In this document: positions 12,326 to 30,021 of the stretch, in pieces | How the letters are laid out: each line of letters begins with the position of its first letter | Numbering within the stretch: the first letter of the stretch is position 1 | Origin: Lotus japonicus | Lineage: Eukaryota; Streptophyta; Magnoliopsida; Fabales; Fabaceae | Assembly (NCBI RefSeq): GCF_012489685.1 | Contig: NC_080045.1 | Coordinates: forward strand, 66,424,722 to 66,488,721 | Reading direction: 5' to 3' | DNA length: 64,000 nucleotides | The notes under the pieces: model-generated | Seen by the model: the letters and a program-made list of their open reading frames with translations, nothing else | Databases searched by the model: none | Told to the model about the DNA's origin: nothing | Made by a program: the position numbers and the translations under genes

Positions 12326-13387
12326 TCAATGTTGCATTAGCCTAAACATGAAAAACAACCGTAGGCTTCTTCCTAGATCTATCTTCCAACAATAGAAGCC
12401 TAGTAACTGTTGGAAGTCATGTCTTGTATGATTTACTAGTCTTTTAATGCGGCCTTCTTCAACATTGTTCCTCCGTAGCCAACATCAATATTGGACATGT
12501 TGTGATGAGATAAGCAACAATATAACATTTGCACTTGCTTGCCTTCACTATACCAATGATGAGGACACCGTGTGAAAGCCTTCAAAAATCTCTATCAAGC
12601 CCCATAATGTGACTCTTTGCTCCAACTGTCCCATCCGCGAGGGAGAATAAGAACAATCCTAAACGAATAACGTTGGTAGACACATTTCATCATTTTCAAG
12701 TTCTTTATCATGGTCGGATGTCTAATGCTTTTAATTTTATTTTTAAATATAGTATAACTTACTATAGTGATCCTCCTTAAAACAAAATTCCTCATGGTCA
12801 TCAAATTTTTCCTCATGGAATGTAGCATTTAGATTTTTTTAAAGTAAACAAATATACTAAATGAGCAAGTTCATTTTCAATGACTTTTCAGATTCTTATT
12901 AACGAGAGTCAAACATATATAATTTATAAATATTTAATATATTTATAATATTAAAAATGTAAGTAGTAAATGTTTAATGAAATAAAGTTTCAACGACTTT
13001 TCAGCCACTTATTAAAGAGCGTCAAACATATATAATTTATAAATATTAAATATTATAAAATATTCACATGCAAGTAGTAACCGTTGAATGAAATAAATTT
13101 TTGATTTCTTTTCATACTCTTATTAACGAGTCGTCAAACATATATAATTTATAAATAATTAATATATTTTAAAATATTCAAAATGCAACTAGTAAACGTT
13201 GAATGAATTAATTTTTTAATAAATAATTTTTATTATTTCTTTGACCAAATATTTTATTAATTTGTAATTTTATTTAGTAAAAAAATATATTTATTATTCA
13301 AGTAACATACCAAGTGCATACTGGATGAGTATAAATATGATAAGAGTATCAAGTATGGGATCACAATTTTCATTCAAGTGTCCAACA

Positions 13388-13981
13388 ATGGCTTCATCGT
13401 CTTCAACGAAAGTGATCTTGATGTGTTATGGAGGGGAGGTTATGGAGGTGCATGAGGCTTTGGTGAATGCATCTCCAACTCTGAAGAGCTTGATACGAGA
13501 AAAGGGTGTTGATGGTGACAACAAGATCAACTTGCCAAACATCTCTATTGAAACTATGTGCAAGATCAATGAGTATGTGAAAAAGCATGCAGAGGCTGTT
13601 GATCCTGCAAAAAATCTTGATGCCTGGGATGAAGAGTTTATTAAGGTTGGCTTAGACACTCTCTATGACCTACTCCAGGTTAGTTTCATCTCTTACACAT
13701 TTTCTTGTATCATTATAAATTCCTTTTCCAATTAAAAATGATGTTTGATTTTATTCCTTCCTATCTTGATTCTGTGTTGATTGGTTCATATGGTTTTCCA
13801 GGCATCATGTTACCTGAAAATTCAAAACCTTAATGATTTGGGATGTAAGACTGTAGCCAACATAATAGCGGGAAAGACCCCAGAACAAATTCGCCAAACT
13901 TTCAATATCAAGAATGATTTTACCCGAGAGGAAGAAGAGGAGGTGAAAGAAGAGTTCGCATGGGCCTTTGAAAAGAAATAA
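13388..13981 (+). CDS. SKP1-like SCF ubiquitin-ligase adaptor, copy B
   Basis: Two exons, 13388-13678 and 13802-13981, encode 156 residues. The first 85 or so residues are identical to copy A. The final dozen of exon 1 differ sharply (here [11 protein letters not shown], there [11 protein letters not shown]), and exon 2 has scattered changes. The C-terminus is WAFEKK, two residues longer than WAFE in copy A, because of a small change at the stop. The intron position and the in-frame upstream ATG (13325) are shared with copy A. Both reading frames are intact, so both may function as F-box-protein adaptors. Confidence 0.88.
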
Positions 13982-15780: not shown

Positions 15781-17606
15781 TCAGTCAGGCAATGCAGTTC
15801 CTCGCTCAAGATTATTTTTAATCTCCAGTGTGTATTTACCAAAGGCTCGCTCAATCTTCTTGTTGAAATGCTCATTACGGTCATTGATCGAGTCAATATC
15901 TTTCTCTTCATGAAATCGTCTTCTCCTACTAAATGACTTGCGCTTGTCATCCCTATCCTTTAGCTCTTGTACCATCCTGTCAATCTTGTCCTCTGAGATT
16001 TTTGGTGCCTATAATGAAAGAAAAGACAACTTGTCACAAATATCCAATGCAATGCAGAATATGAAAGAGATCATTGATGCTGTGGTAGTATACCTTTCCA
16101 TACTGGAGACTTGAAGCATCACGGTAGAACTCAGGATCAGCTTCTTTCATTCTATTGTATTCTTCTATATCAACCTCAACATTCTTGGTCCTCTTTTTGT
16201 ATGCATTGTATAAAGTCTTCTGATTAAAAACTGATAAAATTATTAAAGCATCAGTCCAGTTGGAACAACTCCACACAAGCAATCACATACTCAGCAAAAG
16301 GAGGGCACTAACTTATTTCTCATAGGATAAAAATCTCCAAGATTTCAAAGCACAAAAAGGAAATCTCCAAAATCATTTTATGAGCAGGACTAGACAACAT
16401 TTTGAGGTACTTTTCTGTGTATAAAACCTCGTTATAGATAATTCGCCAACAAATCATTTCAAAAAGACACCATACACTTCAATTAATAAATCACGGTAGG
16501 ACATTATGGTATAGTTTGATCCATGTAGCGGACTTCAACTAATGGACAGACTTCTTAGTTCTTTGGTTGTATAAGATGATTTCGGGAACTATGTTAAACT
16601 TTACACACATAAAGAACAAAGTACAACTATATTTTACGCCTGCATGTATAGACATATATGCAAGAACGTAGATAACCATGCCAGCCAGAAAGATAACGCA
16701 CTGATTGTGCAAGAAGATTTGTTCGATAAATAGAAAACGTACCGTCCCAGCCGAATGGAGCAGGATCCTTATCCCATTTCTTGTATTTGACTTCTGCTGC
16801 CTCTTGTGTGTCAAGCATATATGCCTTGGTCATATCCAGTCCATTTGCATCGAGAAGCTTTCCAATTTTCTTCTTCCTATCCTCGAGCCATTTCTGTTTA
16901 GAAACACCCCTAGACTCTGTTGGACCTTCCATCCTCTTTTTTTCAGCAGCTATTTCAATTTGATTACGTTTCTTCGCTTCTTGCTGCCAGAGAAACAAGA
17001 AAGGATCTAAGTTTTTCTTTTTCTTTTATCAAATCAATAAACGAAGTTATAAAGCAAGACAGGTCTCATCAGTTTACCATCTTGGCTCTCAACTCCATCC
17101 ACTTTTTCTGTCTGCCAGAAAGGTTCTCATAACCTCCCTCCATTTCCTCCGCAACAGGTCGGTCAGGATCACTATCAGAATTTTCATCAGGTTTCGGTCC
17201 GTCATCATGTGTTCCCTCATCCGGATACGACTCATCAGGGACGGCTTGCTCACGGCTACTTCCTCCACTAGCTTGCGCAACTTCTGATATATGTAAAAAC
17301 CAGCATTTAAATATAAATTGCTAAACTCAGTAAGTAGCATTAGCATATAACAAGAAAAATACAACCAAATTTTTTTTATAGGCGAAAAAATCCCTTATGA
17401 ACTAAGTTGAGAATTGAAATGAACATTTTCAATAGGACAGATTTATCGAATCACTTGATAAAACTAGAAAACATGCATTAACCTGATTGCAGTTGTTGCA
17501 TCCTGAGTTTGGCTACAGCAATCACTCTAAAGCAGTAATCACTGCATTCATGAAAAGGATTACCGGCATTCCGGCAATCGGGATGCACTGCTCGTTCGTC
17601 AGACAT
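15781..17606 (-). CDS. SYF2: Pre-mRNA splicing factor SYF2
   Basis: SYF2 is part of the Prp19/NTC spliceosome complex in the nucleus. Exons on the minus strand: 17483-17606, 17078-17283, 16743-16983, 16094-16230, 15781-16008. They give 311 residues; plant homologues are close to 300. An acidic middle (DDGPKPDENSDSDPDRPVAE) precedes the SYF2 domain. That domain runs from SGRQKKWMELRAKM through KKRNQIEIAAEKKR, WLEDRKKKIGKLLDANGLDM and DPAPFGWDVFNQKTLYNAYK to the basic C-terminus with RRRRFHEEKDIDSINDRN. The first exon carries a plant-type N-terminal motif C11-x2-A-x-N-P-F-H19-x-C21-x3-C25 that recurs in the neighbouring PEARLI 4 gene. All splice sites are GT-AG and phases are consistent. Confidence 0.95.
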
Positions 17607-17960
17607 GTTGCTGCACGAAAAACGTGGTATAAGATTGTGCAAATTACATCGGAACGAAAAGTACAAAAACCCTAAAAATCTAGCAAGTAAATAATTCACA
17701 ATTTGATTCCATTATTTGAAAATTGAAAGTAATTAGTGCATACAGAACCCTAATAATCGGGTGAATGTTACCCTTTCTCGTTGGTGCGCAACGAAGATGA
17801 GAGAAGCGAAGGAAAAGCACAAGAGAATGAGGTGAGAGACACGAACCTGAAGCTGAAGCAGCACCGATTTCTGAACAAGCAAGGAGATTGGGAATCGGAT
17901 TTGGGAATCTGATTTCCCGCAGAGAGATGAGTTTCTTTGTTGGGGTTAGGGTTTGTGTGA
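17607..17960 (-). other. SYF2 5' leader and promoter-proximal region
   Basis: Upstream of the SYF2 ATG there is a GC-richer stretch up to about 17955 with GAGAGA-like and AG-rich sequence, as expected for a 5' UTR of a housekeeping gene. An intron between about 17607 and 17850 is possible. Confidence 0.45.
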
Positions 17961-18521
17961 ACCGTTTGATTTCATAAAATTATATCCTTCAACTTTTTTT
18001 TTTTATTTAAAAAAACCTTTAAATTTTTTTTGGTTTAAATAATTTATGTTAAAAGCAGATTAAAATACAAAGTTATTTCTAGTCCATGACTCAGATTTGA
18101 TTGAGTAGTTTCTTTGTAGTTTAATTTTTCAAATTCAAATGTAAATAAAATTGATATTTTTGATGGATTTTAAAGGTATCAATTTTTTAACTCCAGATTA
18201 AATTTGATATGTTTTTTTGAAAAAAAATGGTGGAATGGATAATAAACACTCCTAAACTACTATAGTCACATGCGGGTGAGACCAGCATAGACTAACTTAG
18301 GTAGGTGCGCTAGGGGATCTCTCTTATGATTTGAGAAGAGTTGTTCACCAATTGAGAATTTTATAGACGCAAAGGCACTCAAATTCAAATTCTCAACCTA
18401 TGAGGAAGTGAGAGTTAAATTCGAACCCTGTGATCAGAGGTGTCAGTCCAAGTTAACATAAATTTGATATTTTAACTAATAAATTTTGAGTATCTTTTTG
18501 TCTTAGCCAATCCCCAATGAG
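17961..18521. other. AT-rich intergenic DNA
   Basis: No gene is visible. A tRNA-like phrase, TTAAATTCGAACCCTG, near 18417 may be a decayed SINE, but its A box cannot be identified. Confidence 0.4.
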
Positions 18522-18612
18522 TTTTTTTTTTTTTCATTTATAGGAGTTGAGATTTGAACACCCAATCATTTCTTAAGGGTCAAACTTCTAAACGCCTAAA
18601 CCACTACTTGCA
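18522..18612 (-). mobile_element. Short SINE with A box, B box and poly(A)
   Basis: Reading the minus strand gives an A box TGGTTTAGGCG (exact match to TRGYNNANNNG), a B box GTTCAAATC (exact match to GWTCRANNC) and a tail of 13 A residues at 18522-18534. It ends a few bases left of the Helitron terminus. Confidence 0.65.
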
Positions 18613-18640
18613 CTCACTTGGTTATGAACTAGTGATTATA

Positions 18641-18657
18641 CCCGTGCGATGCACGGG
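18641..18657 (-). terminator. Helitron 3' terminal hairpin
   Basis: Perfect 7 bp stem CCCGTGC/GCACGGG with a 3-base loop, eight bases before the terminal CTAG on the minus strand. In Helitrons this hairpin is thought to act as the rolling-circle termination signal. Confidence 0.8.
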
Positions 18658-19179
18658 CTCTAAATCATTAATTTTGTTGAAATAATTGCGATTAATTTAA
18701 TCCAACAACGGTTCATTATTTTATTATCATTTATCAGATCTCAACTACTCATATATTCACATTAATTATTTTTTCACAATGTCAAAACTAATATAAGTAC
18801 ACAAATAGGAAACATCAACACATACAATACGCTAAGAAACATTATATCAAAGTTATTACATACTTCAATTGAAACTATTAAACCGCCACTCACTCAAGGG
18901 TTTCGAACAACTGCAACTTGAAAAGTATCAGACGCTTGCAACTTGAAAAATCTCAATTGATCGGTGAAATTGAACCTGCTTGCTCTGCATTCAAAAATCA
19001 TTCAGTAACATAGCCGTTTGGCAACACCATGTTAATCAAGGTAGGGCGGTGTACAAAATGATCATCTAGTACTCCAGCTGGGATATGATGTTAAGGGAAA
19101 ATTAAAACTAACAATACTGAAGGTTAAAACAATTTTAGGAATAAGATGGAAGAATGAAGAACATACCAATCGTTTATCG

Positions 19180-19524
19180 TCCTTGCAAAGTTCACGCGTT
19201 AGATCTGTTGTCCATATGAGGTCATGACAAGCAGGCTCTCCATATGATTAGGGTCAACATAATGTATCTCAATCTCATCATCACCAAATATTCATATGTC
19301 ATAATGATTATCATGAATATGACATAGGTGAATTATAGATGTTCCTTCCAAGTTGTACTTGTGGCAGATTCTATCAAATACTTCCTCAAACTGAATTCAT
19401 GTTCCACAACTTGTAACCAAGCAATGGAAAACATTCTCAATAGGGTCAAATAAAACCGTCATTTCACTATGCAGAACATCTACATGCGATTCTGTAAACT
19501 GCCTAGGTAGGTCCATGAAATTCT
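19180..19524 (-). pseudogene. Degenerate coding remnant inside the Helitron
   Basis: After an acceptor-like TTTGTTAG, the minus strand reads about 110 codons with protein-like composition. Segments include MDLPRQFTESHVDVL, FDPIENVFHCLVTSCG, FEEVFDRICHKYNLEGTS and DDEIEIHYVDPNHMES, interrupted by at least three stops. The pattern LP-x2-F near the start and the length recall a plant B3-like fold, but this is a weak impression. I cannot name the family with confidence. Confidence 0.3.
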
Positions 19525-20492
19525 AACAAAAAAAATATCAACCAAATAAATTCATATTCGGGTTACTGAATAATGAAAATAATACAACCGTATTCTTGAA
19601 AGAAAAGCATACACTGTTCGCATGTAGTAGCATGTGGAAGGATTCTGCATAGAGTAAAATAAACTCCTAAATTTTTATTTTCACTTCAAATAAATTCGAT
19701 GGTTACAATCAATCAATCTACTATTTACTATTTTATAAAAAAAATCCCCAATTATACAGTATCTCCTCTTTATATTCATTTTCATGCCAAGGTTCTAACT
19801 TTTTGAGTAATTTACTCAATAATATTTAAATATAAAAAATACTGAACATGTATCTTTATACTTTTATAAATATAATATTAATTAACACGACCCACTGACG
19901 TATGATTAGTAAAAATTATTACAATGACAAACACATGCATCATTACAGTTTTATTATGTATGGTCAATAAATTTTTTATAACATATAATTTAAAAGAAAA
20001 CTAAGAAAATTTCATAAAGAAATTACGCAACTGGAAACTAAGTAAAATATATTAATCTTTACCATTTTCCTTAGTGAAAATGGGAAAAAATATTTTAATT
20101 CGTTAGAAGAAAGAAATTATGCACTATACAATAGTTTCTTATATTATTTCTAATATCTTACACTTAATATTTATTATTAGTTATTTCTGAAGTCTGGATA
20201 ACTTTGATGATTAAAGATAATAACATAGTATAAACTATTGGTGGGTGGACATTGGTAAGATCTTTTAGGTGATTCTAGTGAATATTGGTGAGCATTGATC
20301 TACGTAAAAAATTATCCTCCACAGTCCACACCATCCGTATTTATTTCATGCTTTTTTTTATAAGCATATTTATTTCATACTACATAACCAACTGTCGACA
20401 ACTAAACAAAGAGAAAATCATTCACTTTTTTTTTTTTTGAAATTAAATCATTCAATTATTGAAAAATCTGTAATTGGATTAGTTTTTGTTCT

Positions 20493-20729
20493 TCAGATGA
20501 AATAAACTTTTAAAGATTGGAGAAAGGGGTGGCCGAACATTAAGGGTGTAGATTTTTTAGGGGAAAATCGGTTACAATTAAGTAATTTAGGAGAAAATAG
20601 TGGAATTTGGGAGAGCATTAAAAGGAGTGTGTCAAAATTATAACAGATTAAGGTTTGATCGTTAATGATGGATTTGGAGAAGGCAAAAAAACTGACCAAG
20701 TGATGGAAATTAACAGAAAAATTAGACAA
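20493..20729. other. Repeated low-coding motif region within the Helitron
   Basis: The phrase TTGGGAGAGCATTAA occurs at about 20606 and again, with similar surroundings, at about 22630. This suggests internal duplication within the Helitron body. No convincing gene lies in 19525-24240 apart from the MITE listed separately. Confidence 0.35.
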
Positions 20730-21196
20730 TCGTTAAATTAGATTTCTATATATTTCTTCCCCTCATCGAAGGAATTTACTTCCTAAATTGAAGACAATTG
20801 TTACACTATTCAACATTCTTCAATATCAAAACCCCAAAGCTTTCTGATCATGCCAAGATGAAGACCCACTGGAAATCTTTCTATTAATACCATAAGCTCT
20901 CTAAAGCATGACACTGCACCGTGCAAAAAGATCACGTTTTCTATACTGATATCATCGATTTTAAATTACATTACATTACATGTATACCATATCATAGAAT
21001 AATTCTACTAAAAGCATTCAGCAATGGAGGTAATCAATTGGCGAGCGATGTTGGATTGGGGTAGACATTAGTTGCAATAGATAAAATGGACAGCAACAAA
21101 AACACACACACATATATATATGAATAAAGATATATAGTCTCAATTAATTGTAAACACCTTTTATGTATGTTTTTAGAAAAGTATTAAGGTGTCATT

Positions 21197-21493
21197 TACT
21201 CTCCCTCCGTTTCAAAACAATTGTTGTTTTAGCTTTTCACATATTTTTTAAAATGGTTGTTGTTTTAGAAATCCAAGACTATTTGTCACATCTTCTTCCA
21301 TATACACCCTCATTTAATATTGTATCTCTCATCTACAATGTCCATCAATCACTTAACCTATAATTATCATTCTCTCTGTTTATATAACTCAACTTTAAAT
21401 ATGAGTGTTTTAGTCAAATATTATATCAATTAATGAACTCTTAAATTATGTGCATTACCTTAAACAACAACTATTTTGGAAAAGAGGGAATAC
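21197..21493. mobile_element. Stowaway-like MITE
   Basis: The left end CTCCCTCCGTTTCAAAAC and the right end TTTTGGAAAAGAGGGAATAC are imperfect inverted repeats of the Stowaway type (CTCCCTCCGTTTC). The flanking TA is partly degraded. About 297 bp, non-coding. Confidence 0.6.
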
Positions 21494-24242
21494 TAATTAG
21501 GATGAATTTTTTTAAGAGTTGTATTATATGTGAAAGTATATCTCACACAGACATACACACTCAAACATGGTAAATTTAATTAACACCATACAGTAGATGT
21601 CTGGTGTGATATAAAAGTAGTGGGGTTTTGGTTCAGGACTTCAAGTGTTACTTAAAGCGCATAGGACAATACATGTATACTATTAAGGACACATACATTA
21701 GTTCCAACCTATCTTTGTAACCTATTGAGTGGAGCACAAAGGACCTTCAATCACAAACCCAGTTCCACTGCTGCCTCTACCCCCTATGTTTCTTTCTCGT
21801 ACCTTACATCAATCCAACACATAAACAACTTCCGCTTGGTGCCCACTCAAAGATGCTTTTTTTCATGCTTTCCACCATCCATATATGAAAATGATTGCCG
21901 GAGATTAATGATTTCCTGATTGTTGTCTCAATCCTCTGGCCCTGTAGGTTAACGGAAATGACATGTTGTAAGCTATATGATAGATCATACCACATCACAA
22001 CAAATACATTCAATGATTTAGTGCTATTCATATATGAGAAAGTAACTTAAATTATCTATTATATAAACTAATCAACAAATAACACCCCGGGATTGAACGA
22101 CAGTAAAACTATAAGAGTTACAGTGATTTGTTAAGAACTCTTCTTAGAACATACTGATAATAGATACACAGACAATTTCAAGAACAACCCAATTAAAATG
22201 TCAATATTGAGGCACATGAAAGCAATTGGTGAAATTAAACATAGAGATAGTAAAATATATTGTCTATTATATGTGCAGAAATATAGATCATTGTATATAA
22301 ACCAAATGTCTAGCAAAGGGATAATTAGTTCCATATCGCAGCAGAAACAGAAGGGGAAATGCAATTCAAACCCAAACGTTAAGATACTAATGACCTCAAA
22401 ATAAAAGGAAAGGAAAAAATAGGTTCAATAAGTGGGAACCCTATTAGTTAAGCATAAATTCAAGGTTGTTCACACTGATTCCTCGTCACAACTGATAGTG
22501 TAAGCTTTAAAAAACATCATTTTGAATACCAAATATATATTAAAATAATAGAAGACCAGAAATTGTGAATCCATGTACCTCCAAAGAAAAAGGTTGAAAT
22601 TAAGTAATAATTGATATAGTTAAAGGATTTGGGAGAGCATTAAGTGACTGTCGAAAATTAATATAGCTGAAGTTGAAGAATTGGGAAAAATGACACACTT
22701 TAGAGAGTTCAGGCATGATGATGAGATTGTTGTGACTTGTGAAAGACCAAAAATGAATATAGCTCAGAATGACTTGGCTTCTTATGGAACAGAATAGTCA
22801 GTAGAATCCTTAGGGAGTACTGTTGCATATTCTTCCTCGGCTTTTAATGCCTATACAATCATTCATGTATGTGTGTGAGGGAGCTTACTCATTTTTATTG
22901 AGGTTGACTACCTCCACAGTTATCATGTCAAAGTCAGTTTCCTGAGTTTGTCAATATGTATTGTTTCAATTGATTTACTTGAATATTGTTTACATTTCAG
23001 TAAAATGTAGAACTCTAATCCACTTCTAATCCAATACTCAGTATAGTAAATTTAACTATTCCCCTTAGATTTCAACTGCAGAAGTTAAATTCCACTGAGG
23101 TAGGTAAAGCCAATTGTTTTGTGCAAATATTAAAATTATACCATTACCCCTCTCAAAATACAAAACAGAAAGGGAAAAAGAAGGAACTTCTTGTATGAAC
23201 GTTCCATGTGGGGCATGCAGATTATATGGGAAGGATTTGGCTATTCCTTTTCCACAAAACACTGAAGCATGTCTTCCCCTATAATGCTTCTAGCACATGA
23301 TTTCTATACCCGACTTAGGTATTCATTATTTCCTTTTTCATTTAAGACCAAAAATATTTGTCAATTTTATGTTCCTTACCCAGTCTTCTTTTTCATTAGC
23401 CCTCACCATAGCACCATCAGGAAAGATTTGACAGAGAAAAAAAACTACCAACATGGTGCGCATAAAAAGAAAAATAGGCAGGACATTCAATGAGGTAAAA
23501 AATTCTAAATATAAACAGACCTAATCTCACCTTTGCTTGGTAAATTGTTTAACTTGTTCTGTGTCTGGAACATCTTATTCACTTCCCTGAAATACATATC
23601 AACATACAATAGCATACTCATCATACTTCAAGTAAAAAATAGTTAAAACAAAATACTGCTCATCTTTAATACTAAATAAAGTTCAAAGAGAAATGCAAGG
23701 CGTGAAAGAAATGCAAAAAAGAAGAGACATTATGCAGTTGAAAGAGAAGAAGAAGCAAGACAAAGACTACCTAAGCACGACTGCAATGACGGAGCTCTGG
23801 GGCAAGAGTGACACAGTGAGGCTGCAAGGAAGATAAACATATAAGATGAGATGTATGATGTTGAAATTAGGGACTGATGAGAACAGACAACTTTAAAGCC
23901 CAAAACACTTTAATTCTTTGCACCAATGGTTAGCATCTTTTCAGAAAAATAAACATAAACCAAACTTTAATTAGGGATTGAATATTGATTTGGTAATTTT
24001 CCTCCTGAATCCTGATAAAGTCAAAAATAAAGCTACATTATTCAGTTAAGATGAGAAAGCAAAAGCAGTCTATTACTAAACTATAATGTCTGCATTTAGT
24101 TTCATGCTCCCATCCGAGGATGAAAAAGATTTATCTTCTCCGATTCATCTTCGGATCGTTGTTTTCATAATAGATGCTTCAATCTTCCACCCATGAAAAA
24201 TATAGAAGTTAAGGTTGTAAGTTAACAATCATAAGTAAATAA

Positions 24243-24636
24243 AGCAGTTGGTGTGATGAAAGCTGGACAGATCTTTAGAATTGAACCAATGATCAATGCA
24301 AGTGTCTGGCGTGATCGAATGTGGCCTGATGGATGGACCGTTGTCACAACAGATGGTAAACGAAGTGCTCAATTTGAACACACTCTTTTGGTGACAGAGA
24401 CCGGTATTGAGGTTTTAACAGGACGGTTGCAGACATCACCCTAAGTTTTTCCTTGGCTAAAAGTCATAATTGGGTGAATCTGGCATTTTCTAAATAGTAT
24501 ACAATTTGATAGGCAACCACATTTAATGGTTTCTACTCCATCTGATTGCCTCTCTTTTTGGGTATCATGTTTGTAACTCAAAACATAATTAAGGAGAAAA
24601 GTAAGGTTACTGATATATTGTCTGTATCAAAAAAAA
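24243..24636 (+). pseudogene. 5'-truncated processed retrocopy of methionine aminopeptidase 1A
   Basis: The insertion opens with GCAGTTGGTGTGATGAAAGC and encodes the C-terminus of MetAP1A, which removes initiator Met from nascent proteins. Segments include [57 protein letters not shown] and GRLQTSP. The family His/Glu metal ligands are partly here (IEP, QFEH). A small frame change after TSP gives an early stop at 24442-24444, and about 185 bases of 3' UTR follow. It ends in a run of eight or more A. A 19 bp direct repeat, AACAATCATAAGTAAATAA, flanks it at 24224-24242 and 24637-24655. Together these are the marks of LINE-mediated retroposition. No introns remain. It is not a working gene. Confidence 0.92.
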
Positions 24637-24831
24637 AACAATCATAAGTAAATAATCAATGAATTGATGAGAAAATGAACACAAATATATTATATTATGC
24701 AAATCATTCAAGGAAATTAGTATTCAAAGTTAAAAAAAACACACACATAGACACAACGAACTTGCCTTAAACTTCTCCTTTTCAGCTGCTGCAAACATAT
24801 TATCCCTTTGAGCTGCTGCAAACGTATCAAC

Positions 24832-24903
24832 CTGAATCCTCCATGTATCTCTCCCATGGGACAGGCTGGAAACAAAATTGATTGAACCGTTCAGAGAAGC
24901 CAT
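24832..24903 (-). pseudogene. First exon of an RPA-like gene, copy 1
   Basis: Twenty-four codons, MASLNGSINFVSSLSHGRDT then WRIQ, end at a GT donor (CAG|GTTGAT). Plant RPA70-like (DUF223 OB-fold) genes, often carried by Helitrons, begin with a comparable short exon ending in TW-x-IxVRV. No later OB-fold exon is recognisable downstream, so this is a remnant or captured fragment. Confidence 0.35.
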
Positions 24904-25014
24904 CGTTTGTAACAGGAAAAGGAATTACAATGATACAACCAACAGATAGCGTCACACAAAAGATTGGGTGTGTAACGGAATCAAAACACCCAGCACTATT
25001 TATAGGTAACGTGA

Positions 25015-25433
25015 TGTTAGAAGTCCCACATTGGCTAGAGATAAGGCCAATCAAGTGTTTATAAGGGTTGTGCAAACCTCAACTCTTGAGCTAGCTTTTG
25101 TGGTTGAGTATAGGCATCCCAATTTCTAATATGGTATCAGAGCTCTCTTAGAGAGAGCTCTGCTGCGCATCAATGGCGGCTGCACAAGAAGTCGCGTATC
25201 CCTACTCTGTTCAAGATGCACAAACCGCTTCCCACACATTCTACATTCATCCCAACGAGAGCCCCTCCACCGTTCTGGTTTCACCACCGCTCTCGGAAGG
25301 GAATTACCACAATTGGGCGAGGGCCATGAAGATGAGTCTTCTGACGAAGAACAAGTTAGGGTTCGTGGATGGGTCGATTCCAGAACCTCCTCAAGATCAT
25401 CCAATTTCATCGTTCTGGCAGAGATGCAACTAA
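25015..25433 (+). mobile_element. Copia 5' end: very short LTR, PBS and gag start
   Basis: LTR 25015-25131 (117 bp) starts TGTTAGAAGTCCCACATTGG and ends CCAATTTCTAATA. It is followed at once by the primer-binding site TGGTATCAGAGC (25132-25143), complementary to the 3' end of initiator-Met tRNA. An ATG at 25173 opens 86 codons with the gag features FYIHPNESPSTVLVSPPL, EGNYHNWARAMKMSLL and NKLGFVDGSIPEP, ending at a stop at 25431-25433. Protease, integrase, RT and the 3' LTR are absent, so this is a 3'-truncated copy. The LTR is unusually short for Copia. Confidence 0.85.
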
Positions 25434-25678
25434 CCAACCATAACAAACTAACTAACTAGTATTTACAACAGTCAGTGACTAATGCAGTGATAAATCTACC
25501 ATTTATTTTCACTAAGGTAATACGTGAACTACCAATTTCATATCAGTAAAATATTGGAGGAATGGAAGATAGGAAATCTAAACAAAATCAAAAGAAAATC
25601 CATGGATGTACCTATTATTTTGTTAGAATTACAACCTTCAGGAACCATCACTTCCTTCACTTCCCTGGGGGATCTCAA

Positions 25679-25750
25679 CCCAATACTCCATGTGTCTCTT
25701 CCATTACAAAGGCTGGCAACAGAATTCAAACTTCCAGACAACGAAGCCAT
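25679..25750 (-). pseudogene. First exon of an RPA-like gene, copy 2
   Basis: MASLSGSLNSVASLCNGRDT then WSIG matches the exon at 24832-24903 in about two thirds of residues. A one-base deletion lies next to the donor. The Copia fragment lies between the two copies. No downstream exons seen. Confidence 0.35.
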
Positions 25751-26092
25751 GACAGCAAGACCTCAACAACAAATGGGTATTTCGAGAAGACTATCGGAGG
25801 GATTACTCGATGACTCAAGTGGTGCCAATGGCTGATCACCGTTTGGTTTCTTATAGCTGGCATGGTAAGCATTTGAGAGAGAAAGAAGATGAGAAAGGGG
25901 GGCAAATGGGGAAGAGGTGAAGATTACAGCAGATTTGCAATCTGAAGTGCAATCCGTACCCTGCAGCTACCGTTATCGGGCCTCCAGCATAGGTCTCGGA
26001 AAAACCGACCCATAACCCTACCTTGACCCGGCTCTGGTGGGTTTTTTCTTATGAACAGTGGCCAAATCCCTCTAGCTTTAGTAAGTTATAGA

Positions 26093-27265
26093 TGTTTAGT
26101 ATAAAAAAGATTTTAGATATCTTAATTAATTTAAATTATAGAGATCTTAGGAAGAAAATTATAGAAAATGAGTCTCAAGTAGCTTTTTTGGTATAAACAT
26201 TCAATACCCGGTCACCATTTGAATGTTGTCAGATTATTTCTCCCCCATATTGTGTTTATGTGAGCATTGAATTCGAGAGCTCTTCTCACACACTCATCAT
26301 GTATTGCCAACTGAATTACTCCTCATGTGTAGTCAGTCTCAAGAACCTTGAATGTGCCAATATAAATTTAAGAAACTAAAAAATTAAGAAATGCTTCAAA
26401 ATAAAATGAGTACGAAATGAATGTGACACCACACAATTATATTATTACTACCCACCCACATATTATTTGGTTATCAAACGATCTCATTGTAAGACCAATG
26501 GATTTCGGATTCTATGGATATATCTTCACAACTGAAAGTCTTGATCCAATTAGAGTAGTTAGAAGTGCGTAGACTTGGACTATTCTTTCTCTTGATCCAA
26601 CTGAAAAAGGACCAAACTTGTAATTGTTGTAGAATGACTACAATATCTTGACAAAGAAATATAAGACTACAATGACTTTGACAAAAAAAAAATGAACTCT
26701 TGCCTTTAGAAGAATTAATTTAAATTTATTTTATAGCATAAACATTTGTGTAAGTGTTTGAGACTTTGAGAAAATTTATATAAATAGCTCGTTTATTAAA
26801 CAACTCTATTTCAGTCAAATAGTTCATTATAAAATAACCAAATAAACTTTAACTAATTAAAATGAAGAATGGGTACTTGGCTCAACAAAACTAAATAAAT
26901 TAATGAAGGTCCAGTGAGGGGTTCACATAACCAGTTCTAAGACCAAAACAGACCAAAATGTTGATGGGACAGTATAATCAATATAAATAAAAAATTGCAG
27001 TGCATTTGTGTCGGGTTGTAATATGTATTCTTACCACATTACCTATACCTCCCATGCGTTTATTCAGCAGCAAACTCTACTTGTTAAGTAACTATTACAA
27101 CCACATTCTAAAGACATACCAATTAGCCAAACATAAATTTAAAAGTCCTTCTACAATTGATTATAAAATCATAATTAATTCTGACCAGGAGAAGCTTCAA
27201 TGCCTAGTTTCCAGGTTTCATAATTAATTATGAGAAAAATGAAGCAGCTGATCGATCGAATAATA
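26093..27265. other. AT-rich intergenic DNA and PEARLI 4 gene 3' flank
   Basis: No coding signal or clear repeat. The short plus-strand frame at 27000-27227 shows no family resemblance. The right end should hold the 3' UTR of the PEARLI 4 gene. Confidence 0.5.
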
Positions 27266-30021
27266 TCACAGTAGATCATCTAGCAAGGACTTGCTATCCA
27301 AATTCTGAACCTTGGACTTGATAGACAACAAGTTCTTATCCAAATCAGAAGCCTTCACCTCAAGCTCACTCAAATGCTCTTTGATATCTTCAATCTTTGT
27401 TTTAATATCACTCACCTCTTTCTCTTTCTGCACCAAAATTTCATTTTCTGACTCCAGCTCTTTCCTCAACTTCTCCATTTCAAGATCATAGTTCGCCTTC
27501 GCCGCCTCGACGTCGCGGTGCTCACTGAAGAGCTCAATGTTCTCAGCAATTTCATCCACTATGGTACGCAACCACGCCACACGAAGCTGAGCAGATTCAA
27601 TGTCCTTAAGAATAGCTAACAATTCCTTGATTTTGGACTTTGTTAATTGCATGATTGTGGTGGATTGCAACTCTTGAACCACAAAGCACACACACTCAAT
27701 GTAATAGGACCTCATAACAAGTGATTCCAAGTGACAACTTGCTCCTATGTCTTTATATTTCTCAAAGATGGATCTCAGAATTGGAGCAAAGCTTTCTTTG
27801 ACATGATATCTTCCAACTGGGACACGTGTCTCAGAAACCACAGACTCAGTCTCCTCTCCATCATTATCATCATCACTGTCTTGATCATCAATGTCATCAG
27901 AAGAACAGAAATGTTTGGAGGACCCACAAAGGGACTTTGTGGTGACAGCTTCTGATCCTGTGTCATCAACAGAAGTTGTGATTGGAACAACTTTGGGTGA
28001 AGAATTTTTGTCCCCTTCTTGCTTTGTTTTCACTGGGACGGCAAGATGCTCACAACCATTCTCTGATTCTGCTTTGTGATTGGCAGGCTTGGTCAAAGAA
28101 AACAAGGGAAAGAGACAAGTCAGCAATATTTTTGTTTGGGTTTGTAAAGTCTAAACCACTCCAAGTGAATATGAGGTAAATTAACCACAACCTTAGGTGG
28201 TCCGGAAATATTTTGACATGAGTCTTCAAAAATTTCAGTTTATAACATGTATCAAAATATTACTGATCACCCAAGATAATAGTGATTTTAATTTTTACAT
28301 GATTTATACAACTCATTGGTTTATAAAACCAAATCTAACTAGAAAATGAGTGACTAAAAACTTATTTATGAACATCACAAAATTTTGAAAAAGAAATATT
28401 GTCTAAAGAGAATGTGAGGAAAGAGATGGCACTACCTTGTGTAATTCTCCAGAAACTGGTATTAGTTCATTGCTTTTTGGCTTTACCTTTTTCTTTTCAT
28501 AGTAATTTGATATTGGTGATGTAGCATCAGAGAGGTATATAGCTCCAATTTTTGAGGCTGGAATATTGTCAAGAACAGGAAGTTCTGGCTTAGAACCCAG
28601 CTTCTTTTTACTGCCAAACTTCAATGGAATCACACCTGCAATTTGAGAGAGTTCAGTCAGAAACATATTCATTGTGACTGAAAGTTAAGCTCACTCGGTA
28701 TATCAATGATCTCTTTATCATCTTAAAGAAAAATTGGTAAACTAGTCAAACAGATTAGCAGACAAAACTTGCTAGCAACTTTATTAACAGTGCATCTTTG
28801 GATACATTGTGAAAAATCACATCAACCAAATGACAGTGGATAAAACCAACTTCTTTCAACTTTTGTGACTGTTCATCATGATTTTAAATCTACTGTAATG
28901 TTTTAGGTTCTACCCTGTATCCAAACATGCACTACATAGATATTGCAGATTTATGGGATGGACAGTCAAATGTTTTTTTGTCGTAGACGAAATCACAGTT
29001 TCAATGCAGTTTACATTATTTGTACGCAACCTATTGAAGTCTGAATCATATCAAAAGAGACCACCGTTTATATTTTCAGTCTCCAAATGGATATGTTTCT
29101 AGATTAAATTGTAGATAAACAACAAACATAGTTTCATACTTTCATTTGAATCAAAAGAGTGGATAAGATGACATATCTAAAACGGAAGAAACACTGAAAT
29201 TCACTGAATGATTGGTTTCTCAATTTACACAAAATCAATGTGCATACTTTTAAAAAACTAGTACTAAACTTAGTTTCTTCTAACTAGATGCGATCCTTTC
29301 ACATTTCACTATGAAACCTAACATGACATCAGTAAAAATTGATTCTATAGGTGTATTTCTGTAAGAACAGGTTGGACCTGAGGAGAAATCTTACCCAAAA
29401 ATTGATTCAATCCAAGAAAACACACTGTATAACCAGTTAAATTGGGTAAAAGAAAAAAGTAAATTATTTTTACTGTTCATATAAACCTGAATCAGCTCCT
29501 GACATTGTTTTGGGACAAGTATGACCACACACATGGTAAGGATTAGAAGCTTTAGGACAACCTGAGTTGGTGCGTTTTTCTTCATTCATCTTTTTCCCTA
29601 GCTCACCATCTGTAACACTTCTGCGATAATCTTTCATAGAAAGAAAAAAACACACAGATCTTCAAGTGTTCAGAGATTCACAGCTAGCAAGTTATTTAAC
29701 ATCAATTAGGAGTTATTCACAAATCATCTTATGAAATCAACATCTAATTGATTCTCATTAGTAACTAAATTCCAGAAAGAAGGAAAAAAAAAATTCAGGA
29801 TAGGCCAAAAACAGTGAAAATTGAATTTTCTGTCAGACAATAAATCAAATACACAGAGTGCATAAACAGGGAAAAGTCAGAAAATAAAACTAACCAGAAG
29901 TCTTCTTAGTTTTAGGTGGCAGCTTGGTTTCCTTGATCTTATGCAAGCATGCCTCAGTGCATTCATGGTAGGGATTAGCTGCATATAAACAATTTGGCAT
30001 AACTCTTCCAGTTTGAGCCAT
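27266..30021 (-). CDS. PEARLI 4 (phospholipase-like) family protein with two N-terminal Cys/His motifs
   Basis: Exons on the minus strand: 29895-30021, 29487-29609, 28436-28635, 27266-28087, giving 423 residues. Residues 1-75 carry two copies of C-x2-A-x-N-P-Y-H-x-C-x3-C: C11/H19/C21/C25 in exon 1 and C60/H68/C70/C74 in exon 2. The middle is low complexity with an acidic run (SSDDIDDQDSDDDNDGEETE). The last 180 residues form the PEARLI 4 domain: a helical part with RSYYIECVCFVVQELQSTTI and KIKELLAILKDIESAQLRVA, then a long coiled coil rich in E/K/L. The biochemical role is unknown; 'phospholipase-like' is a historical name. I placed the exon 2 acceptor at TTACAG|ATGG because it keeps the frame, whereas the nearby TCGCAG|AAG would not. 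The start ATG at 30021 aligns with the SYF2 N-terminus. A 5' UTR intron is likely upstream. Confidence 0.82.

What the first reader, a model, noticed from the sequence alone, without database searches (positions are those of the whole stretch)
17483..30021. Neighbouring SYF2 and PEARLI 4 genes share the same N-terminal Cys/His motif at the same residue positions
SYF2 residues 11-25 and PEARLI 4 residues 11-25 both read C-x2-A-x-N-P-[FY]-H-x-C-x3-C, with C11, H19, C21 and C25 in both. A second copy sits at residues 60-74 of PEARLI 4. In both genes exon 1 carries the motif and ends in phase 1 (124 and 127 nt). PEARLI 4 exon 2 is a symmetric phase 1-1 exon of 123 nt carrying the second copy. Four regularly spaced ligand-type residues suggest a small zinc-binding module. 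Symmetric phases and linkage suggest the module spread by local exon duplication between a spliceosome gene and an unrelated coiled-coil gene.
Basis: partly seen in the sequence, partly recalled or inferred. Interest (0 to 1): 0.78.

Follow-up and report, generated by a model that had tools for sequence, protein, structure and literature searches.

The report
Shared Cys/His module in plant genes
Two neighbouring plant genes, one for a splicing-machine part and one for a poorly understood protein, carry the same small and highly conserved Cys/His protein module, which other plant proteins carry in strings of several copies.

Summary
Confirmed, with one correction. In this Lotus japonicus window, SYF2 exon 1 and PEARLI-4 exons 1 and 2 encode the same module, C-x7-H-x-C-x3-C in a NASNPYH core, found nowhere else in the window. 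The two families' modules are homologous: profile hits 35 of 35 one way and 73 of 73 the other, none on 108 shuffled proteins. PEARLI-4 module 1 still matches with the four Cys/His columns deleted. The annotated protein uses a 144-nt exon 2, so the second copy is at residues 67-81, not 60-74.

The module reaches beyond these genes: fern SYF2, two-copy SYF2s, four-copy PEARLI-4s, and 25 proteins with 3-6 copies. No Pfam model matched the window's copies, and no solved SYF2 chain was hit. One Salix SYF2 record begins with a PEARLI-4-type module.

Most likely it is a small metal-binding loop-helix docking module that moves as a phase-1 exon. Homology and conservation are shown. Metal binding, function and direction of spread are inferred.

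The parts
17483..17606 (-). SYF2 coding exon 1 (124 nt, ends in phase 1), carries the module; motif codons 17532-17576 (residues 11-25)
17078..17283 (-). SYF2 exon 2 (206 nt): poorly conserved linker and start of the conserved part
   Evidence: conservation
16743..16983 (-). SYF2 exon 3 (241 nt)
16094..16230 (-). SYF2 exon 4 (137 nt)
15781..16008 (-). SYF2 exon 5 (228 nt incl. stop); protein 311 aa, Pfam SYF2 PF08231 at residues 157-304 (E 2.9e-38)
29895..30021 (-). PEARLI-4 coding exon 1 (127 nt, ends in phase 1), module copy 1; motif codons 29947-29991 (residues 11-25)
29487..29630 (-). PEARLI-4 exon 2 (144 nt, phase 1-1), module copy 2; motif codons 29515-29559 (residues 67-81).
28436..28635 (-). 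PEARLI-4 exon 3 (200 nt)
27266..28087 (-). PEARLI-4 exon 4 (822 nt incl. stop); holds the PEARLI-4 domain PF05278 (E 1.9e-59)

Best explanation
The 15-residue match is the core of a plant module of about 27-30 residues, consensus V-x-P-x-C-x-N-A-S-N-P-[YF]-H-x-C-x-[ED]-[YN]-C followed by a short helix. I read it as a compact metal-binding (most likely zinc) loop-helix unit: C11, H19 and C21 on the loop up to the helix start, C25 in the first helical turn, with exposed residues docking a partner protein or RNA. It sits on a phase-1 exon, so it can be added, doubled or strung into arrays without breaking the frame. In SYF2 it is an N-terminal handle joined to the spliceosomal part by a poorly conserved linker. 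In PEARLI-4 proteins two to four handles precede the PEARLI-4 domain. In 25 further proteins (monocots in all 19 with a named source) three to six copies are spread along the chain. I infer that these proteins share a binding partner and that the arrays bind it multivalently. SHOWN: homology, conservation, copy-number differences. INFERRED: metal binding, the loop-helix fold (weak models), docking, shared partner, spread by exon duplication, and which gene had the module first.
Against: Both AlphaFold2 models are weak overall (mean pLDDT 53.4 and 61.0; pTM 0.18 and 0.21), so fold and metal site are not demonstrated. No zinc-finger family passes its cut-off: zf-C6H2 E 0.011 in 1 of 21 modules, DNA_ligase_ZBD 19.4 bits against 25.8 in 1 of 10 proteins. 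With ligands deleted, the SYF2 profile matches only 4 of 31 module-2 sequences and the module-2 profile 32 of 52 SYF2s; with the whole 15-mer removed, flanks match in 1 of 30 and 3 of 52, so the signal is short. Some array copies look decayed by eye, with two or more ligands lost (in P0067 and P0077). The Salix case is one record and may be a gene model that ran two neighbours together. No partner or function of the module was found in the papers searched. The protein searches were built on the module, so SYF2 or PEARLI-4 proteins without it could not be seen.
Confidence: 0.6

Rival explanations
1. The module is a disulfide or redox unit: C11 and C21 form a C-x9-C pair with an aromatic-His-x-Cys end, as recalled for twin CX9C (CHCH) proteins, and C25 is a spare or redox-active Cys.
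For: C-x9-C spacing with [YF]-H-x-C is present in all 310 copies counted (the count required the three Cys and the His).
Against: One C-x9-C per module plus C-x3-C, not two C-x9-C pairs; the models put no helix between C11 and C21; AtSYF2 is listed as catalytic step 2 spliceosome and nuclear (PMC10951710, passage).
Confidence: 0.15
2. The module is an RNA-binding zinc element that lets SYF2 and the array proteins touch RNA.
For: SYF2 works in the spliceosome; some array linkers are Ser/Arg-rich by eye (P0065, P0066).
Against: No conserved basic residue in the 15-residue core; no RNA-binding family matched above cut-off.
Confidence: 0.15
3. The likeness is convergence between two unrelated short metal sites.
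For: The region is short, and flanks alone seldom match (1 of 30 and 3 of 52).
Against: Non-ligand positions are shared (N16 in 309 and P17 in 305 of 310 copies), and module 1 and SYF2 match after the ligands are deleted.
Confidence: 0.03
4. A single old transfer between the two genes was followed only by duplication within each gene; the present linkage is incidental.
For: In the module tree PEARLI-4 later modules are one group (support 94) and SYF2 modules sit together, with two array first-modules among them and one Salix module outside. Mean module identity is 0.51 between SYF2 and PEARLI-4 module 1, but 0.40 between PEARLI-4 modules 1 and 2. Fern SYF2 has the module.
Against: Salix P0089 looks like a PEARLI-4 first module joined to SYF2, though on one record. 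The tree is poorly resolved: 30 columns, 4 of 100 inner branches starred.
Confidence: 0.5

Closest known systems
SYF2 splicing factor (PF08231; solved SYF2 chains)
   Same: The C-terminal part is ordinary SYF2
   Different: The N-terminal module and linker have no counterpart in the solved chains: chain 5mqf_N aligns from plant residue 89 on, 8xi2_M from residue 38 on, and the module profile hits no SYF2 chain at E<=10
PEARLI-4 family (PF05278), 'phospholipase-like'
   Same: C-terminal domain E 1.9e-59
   Different: The Pfam match covers residues 211-421 of the 423-aa model scanned; the N-terminal module pair lies outside it
Small zinc modules (CCHC knuckle C-x2-C-x4-H-x4-C; U11-48K CHHC; spacings recalled)
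   Same: Cys/His ligands within about 30 residues, helix beside the ligands (weak model)
   Different: C-x7-H-x-C-x3-C spacing and the NASNPYH core; no zinc-finger profile above cut-off
Twin CX9C (CHCH) proteins (pattern recalled)
   Same: C-x9-C ending in aromatic-His-x-Cys
   Different: Only one C-x9-C per module, no helix predicted between the pair

Membership tests
SYF2 (PF08231) | SYF2 domain above Pfam cut-off | tested here: met
   132.1 bits against cut-off 23.5
PEARLI-4 (PF05278) | PEARLI-4 domain above Pfam cut-off | tested here: met
   201.6 bits against cut-off 29.9
Shared CHCC module (this report) | C-x7-H-x-C-x3-C in a NASNPYH-type core, profile E<1e-10 | tested here: met
   Three window copies, E 4e-18 to 3e-14
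A Pfam zinc-finger family | Match above the curated cut-off | tested here: not met
   zf-C6H2 E 0.011 in 1 of 21 modules. DNA_ligase_ZBD 19.4 bits against 25.8 in 1 of 10 proteins
Zinc-binding module in general | Metal bound by the four conserved residues | not testable with these tools
   Needs a metal assay or structure; models are weak
Zinc-binding module in general | Ligand residues co-conserved across copies | tested here: met
   310 copies with all four, 1 with one lost and core kept; copies that lost two or more were not counted by that script, and at least two are visible by eye
Twin CX9C (CHCH), pattern recalled | Two C-x9-C pairs in a helical hairpin | tested here: not met
   One C-x9-C in the SYF2 module; no helix between C11 and C21 in a weak model

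The most novel reading that the evidence does not exclude
A new class of plant zinc module, carried on a phase-1 exon, is a common docking tag: the plant spliceosome (through SYF2), PEARLI-4 proteins and multivalent array proteins bind the same partner through it, so the latter two can compete for or cluster the splicing complex. Tandem and neighbour-to-neighbour exon duplication still changes the copy number.
Probability: 0.25. Interest if true: 0.78.

Novelty: new variant of a known kind. Interest (0 to 1): 0.6.

Why it matters
A spliceosome subunit of flowering plants and a fern carries a module about as conserved as its core domain, yet no Pfam model matched it in this window and no solved SYF2 chain was hit. 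It links SYF2 to a poorly understood family and to array proteins with no precomputed Pfam domain (25 of 25), so a partner of one module is a candidate partner of all. It is also a readable case of module spread by exons. Public labels already cross over: a clover SYF2 is named 'PEARLI 4 family' and a sedge array protein 'GCIP-interacting'.

Tried and rejected
Chance match: rejected. Further degraded copies in the window: none found. Prokaryotic relatives: one locus (L001, Lacibacter) passed among 17 pattern matches; the match lies in a stretch of about 70 codons with stops on either side and repeated stops beyond, so I take it as chance. Viral contigs: no match. PDB profile search: 36 sequences at E 0.23-1.3, 35 of them one viral glycoprotein over 13-15 residues and one a PARP3 chain, judged chance. 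Pfam matches above cut-off over the repeat of one Hibiscus protein (Mrx7 31.1 bits, DUF3149 25.5 bits) cover 25 and 13 residues with no stretch passing on its own; I judged them spurious. A fold search was not run because the models are weak. Gene order outside legumes rests on Arabidopsis gene numbers in papers. The third search listed proteins of 42-381 aa, so longer module carriers, PEARLI-4 proteins of monocots among them, were not covered, and only the best 120 of its 252 hits were shown. A count of module genes in the window's own genome is missing because the genome search did not complete.
Full report
THE OBSERVATION. The spliced PEARLI-4 model from the window is letter-identical to the annotated Lotus japonicus protein P0027, so I take the window as L. 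japonicus. Both genes lie on the minus strand, PEARLI-4 upstream of SYF2 in the same orientation. A strict six-frame pattern search finds three copies only: 17532-17576, 29947-29991 and 29515-29559. A module profile run on 3403 ORF fragments finds the same three at E 4e-18, 4e-16 and 3e-14, then nothing better than E 1.4. About 9e-7 copies of the full pattern would be expected by composition.

GENE MODELS. SYF2 has five exons (17606-17483, 17283-17078, 16983-16743, 16230-16094, 16008-15781) giving 311 aa; the Pfam SYF2 domain covers residues 157-304. PEARLI-4 has four coding exons (30021-29895, 29630-29487, 28635-28436, 28087-27266) giving 430 aa, the annotated form. Coding exon 1 ends in phase 1 in both genes and PEARLI-4 exon 2 is phase 1-1. 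Of 35 PEARLI-4 hits, 17 have the first Cys at residue 11; most others have an N-terminal extension, and 34 of 35 keep a Met 10 or 12 residues before that Cys. The first module exon may therefore be internal in some isoforms.

HOMOLOGY. Profiles built from one family find the other in every protein tested: SYF2 modules against the 35 PEARLI-4 hits (34 of them with a precomputed PF05278 domain), 35 of 35; PEARLI-4 module 1 against 73 full-length SYF2s, 73 of 73; module 2, 73 of 73. None of the three profiles hit 108 shuffled proteins. After deleting the four Cys/His columns, SYF2 and module 1 still recognise each other (28 of 30 and 52 of 52 at E<0.01; SYF2 profile on 1640 shuffles, 0). For module 2 the signal is weaker (4 of 31 and 32 of 52), module 1 against module 2 gives 6 of 31, and flanks outside the 15-mer give almost nothing (1 of 30 and 3 of 52). 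So shared ancestry rests on the core. Mean module identity is 0.51 between SYF2 and PEARLI-4 module 1, 0.41 between SYF2 and module 2, and 0.40 between PEARLI-4 modules 1 and 2: the first PEARLI-4 copy is nearer to SYF2's than to its own neighbour.

DISTRIBUTION. All 161 fetched proteins have at least one copy, which the module-based queries make likely; these sets say nothing about how many orthologues lack it. SYF2 carriers include legumes, other eudicots, grasses and the fern Ceratopteris (P0144). Of 73 full-length SYF2s, 64 have one copy and 9 have two (three Oryza, two Zizania, Rhynchospora, Paulownia, Salix and one unnamed source); a truncated Hibiscus cannabinus SYF2 has five. Of 35 PEARLI-4 hits, 33 have two copies and 2 (Durio, Pterospermum) have four. 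Twenty-five further proteins, grouped by hand, have three to six copies; 22 of 25 end within 11 residues of the last copy and 3 have tails of 46-126 residues. All 19 with a named source are monocots (taxonomy recalled) and 6 have no name; none of the 25 has a precomputed Pfam domain. I scanned eight of them against Pfam: nothing passed a cut-off. Two more proteins in that scan: a grass SYF2 fragment (P0082) with nothing above cut-off, and the Hibiscus protein, where Mrx7 and DUF3149 pass over short parts of the repeat, which I judge spurious.

OUTSIDE PLANTS. The module profile against the PDB gives nothing better than E 0.23 and no SYF2 chain, although the PDB holds several: 5mqf, 6qdv, 8ro0, 9esh, 9l5r and 8xi2 (recalled as animal, fungal and, for 8xi2, Chlamydomonas). 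The prokaryote scan gave one match judged chance and the viral scan none.

LINKAGE. In the two searches, 13 legume species appear in both lists. In 9 the SYF2 and PEARLI-4 proteins are on contigs of the same length, which I take as the same contig: Canavalia, Gastrolobium, Abrus, Flemingia, Sesbania, Phaseolus, Trifolium pratense, Sphenostylis, Cicer. In 4 they are not: Glycine max, Lathyrus, Trifolium repens, Lupinus angustifolius. Most of these contigs are chromosome-sized, so a shared contig alone is weak; Gastrolobium (362 kb) and Sesbania (3.1 Mb) are tighter, and three have adjacent or near-adjacent tags: Canavalia 12006/12007, Phaseolus 013575/013576, Flemingia 023057/023059. At2g16860 is listed as SYF2 (PMC545797, passage) and AT2G16900 as PEARLI 4 family (PMC5073745, passage); the numbers lie close together. 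So the neighbourhood is probably old, which makes a local origin possible without proving it.

WITHIN-GENE DUPLICATION AND ONE CHIMAERA. A module tree (104 modules, 30 columns, 4 of 100 inner branches starred, 56 open) puts PEARLI-4 later modules in one group (94). SYF2 modules sit together in an open group (85) with two array first-modules inside, and PEARLI-4 first modules lie elsewhere. So most duplication seems to be inside a gene. The exception is Salix P0089: its first module is 89% identical to Ricinus PEARLI-4 module 1, against 59% to the best-scoring first module of another SYF2, while its second is 96% identical to a SYF2 module. Its first 39 residues read like a PEARLI-4 exon 1 joined to SYF2. 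This is a single record: a real exon capture, or a gene model that ran two neighbours together.

CONSTRAINT AND FOLD. In 46 SYF2s the module has mean majority identity 0.90, the domain 0.91 and the linker between them 0.47; C11, H19, C21 and C25 are invariant. Over the 161 proteins, 310 copies have the four ligands (the count requires them) and one copy with the core kept has lost one; N16 is kept in 309 and P17 in 305 of the 310. That script does not count copies that lost two or more, and by eye at least two such exist (P0067, P0077). Structure prediction (26 and 46 sequences) is poor: mean pLDDT 53.4 and 61.0. Ten-residue blocks over motifs score 52-74, linker blocks 31-52. In five of five modules the helix begins two residues after the third ligand. 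This fits a loop-helix metal site but does not show one.

WHAT IS KNOWN. No Pfam model matched the window's modules. Full-text searches for ten motif strings found one paper, which prints a bean protein containing it as 'unknown' (PMC4039509, passage). A search for papers with both 'PEARLI 4' and SYF2 found none. Searches on PEARLI 4, PEARLI4, SYF2 with zinc, GCIP-interacting, At2g16860, AT2G16900 and PEARLI-4 (listings, plus passages of ten papers) showed no description of the module. Most subscription journals are outside that library, so I can only say that these searches did not find it.

VERDICT. Zinc binding is the best guess; local spread is possible and unproven.

Noticed in passing
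window 25152-25433 (+): Copia-type gag fragment (PF14244, E 1.2e-18), with a primer-binding-like stretch just upstream by eye: a retrotransposon remnant between the two genes.
   Followed up: partly
window 24235-24444 (+): ORF resembling the C-terminal part of a methionine aminopeptidase (Peptidase_M24 E 0.00028, just below cut-off): perhaps a pseudogene fragment.
   Followed up: partly
window 13268-13735 (+): SKP1-like ORF (Skp1_POZ, E 9.2e-07) about 2 kb beyond the end of SYF2.
   Followed up: partly
window 24730-24924 and 25538-25762 (-): Two short ORFs that start with nearly the same 23 residues (16 of 23 identical), without a Pfam match: perhaps a duplicated first exon.
   Followed up: partly
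P0009 and P0066: Public labels cross between the families: a Trifolium repens SYF2 is named PEARLI 4 family, and a Rhynchospora array protein is named GCIP-interacting.
   Followed up: no
P0089 (Salix suchowensis): SYF2 protein with a PEARLI-4-type first module: exon capture or annotation read-through.
   Followed up: partly
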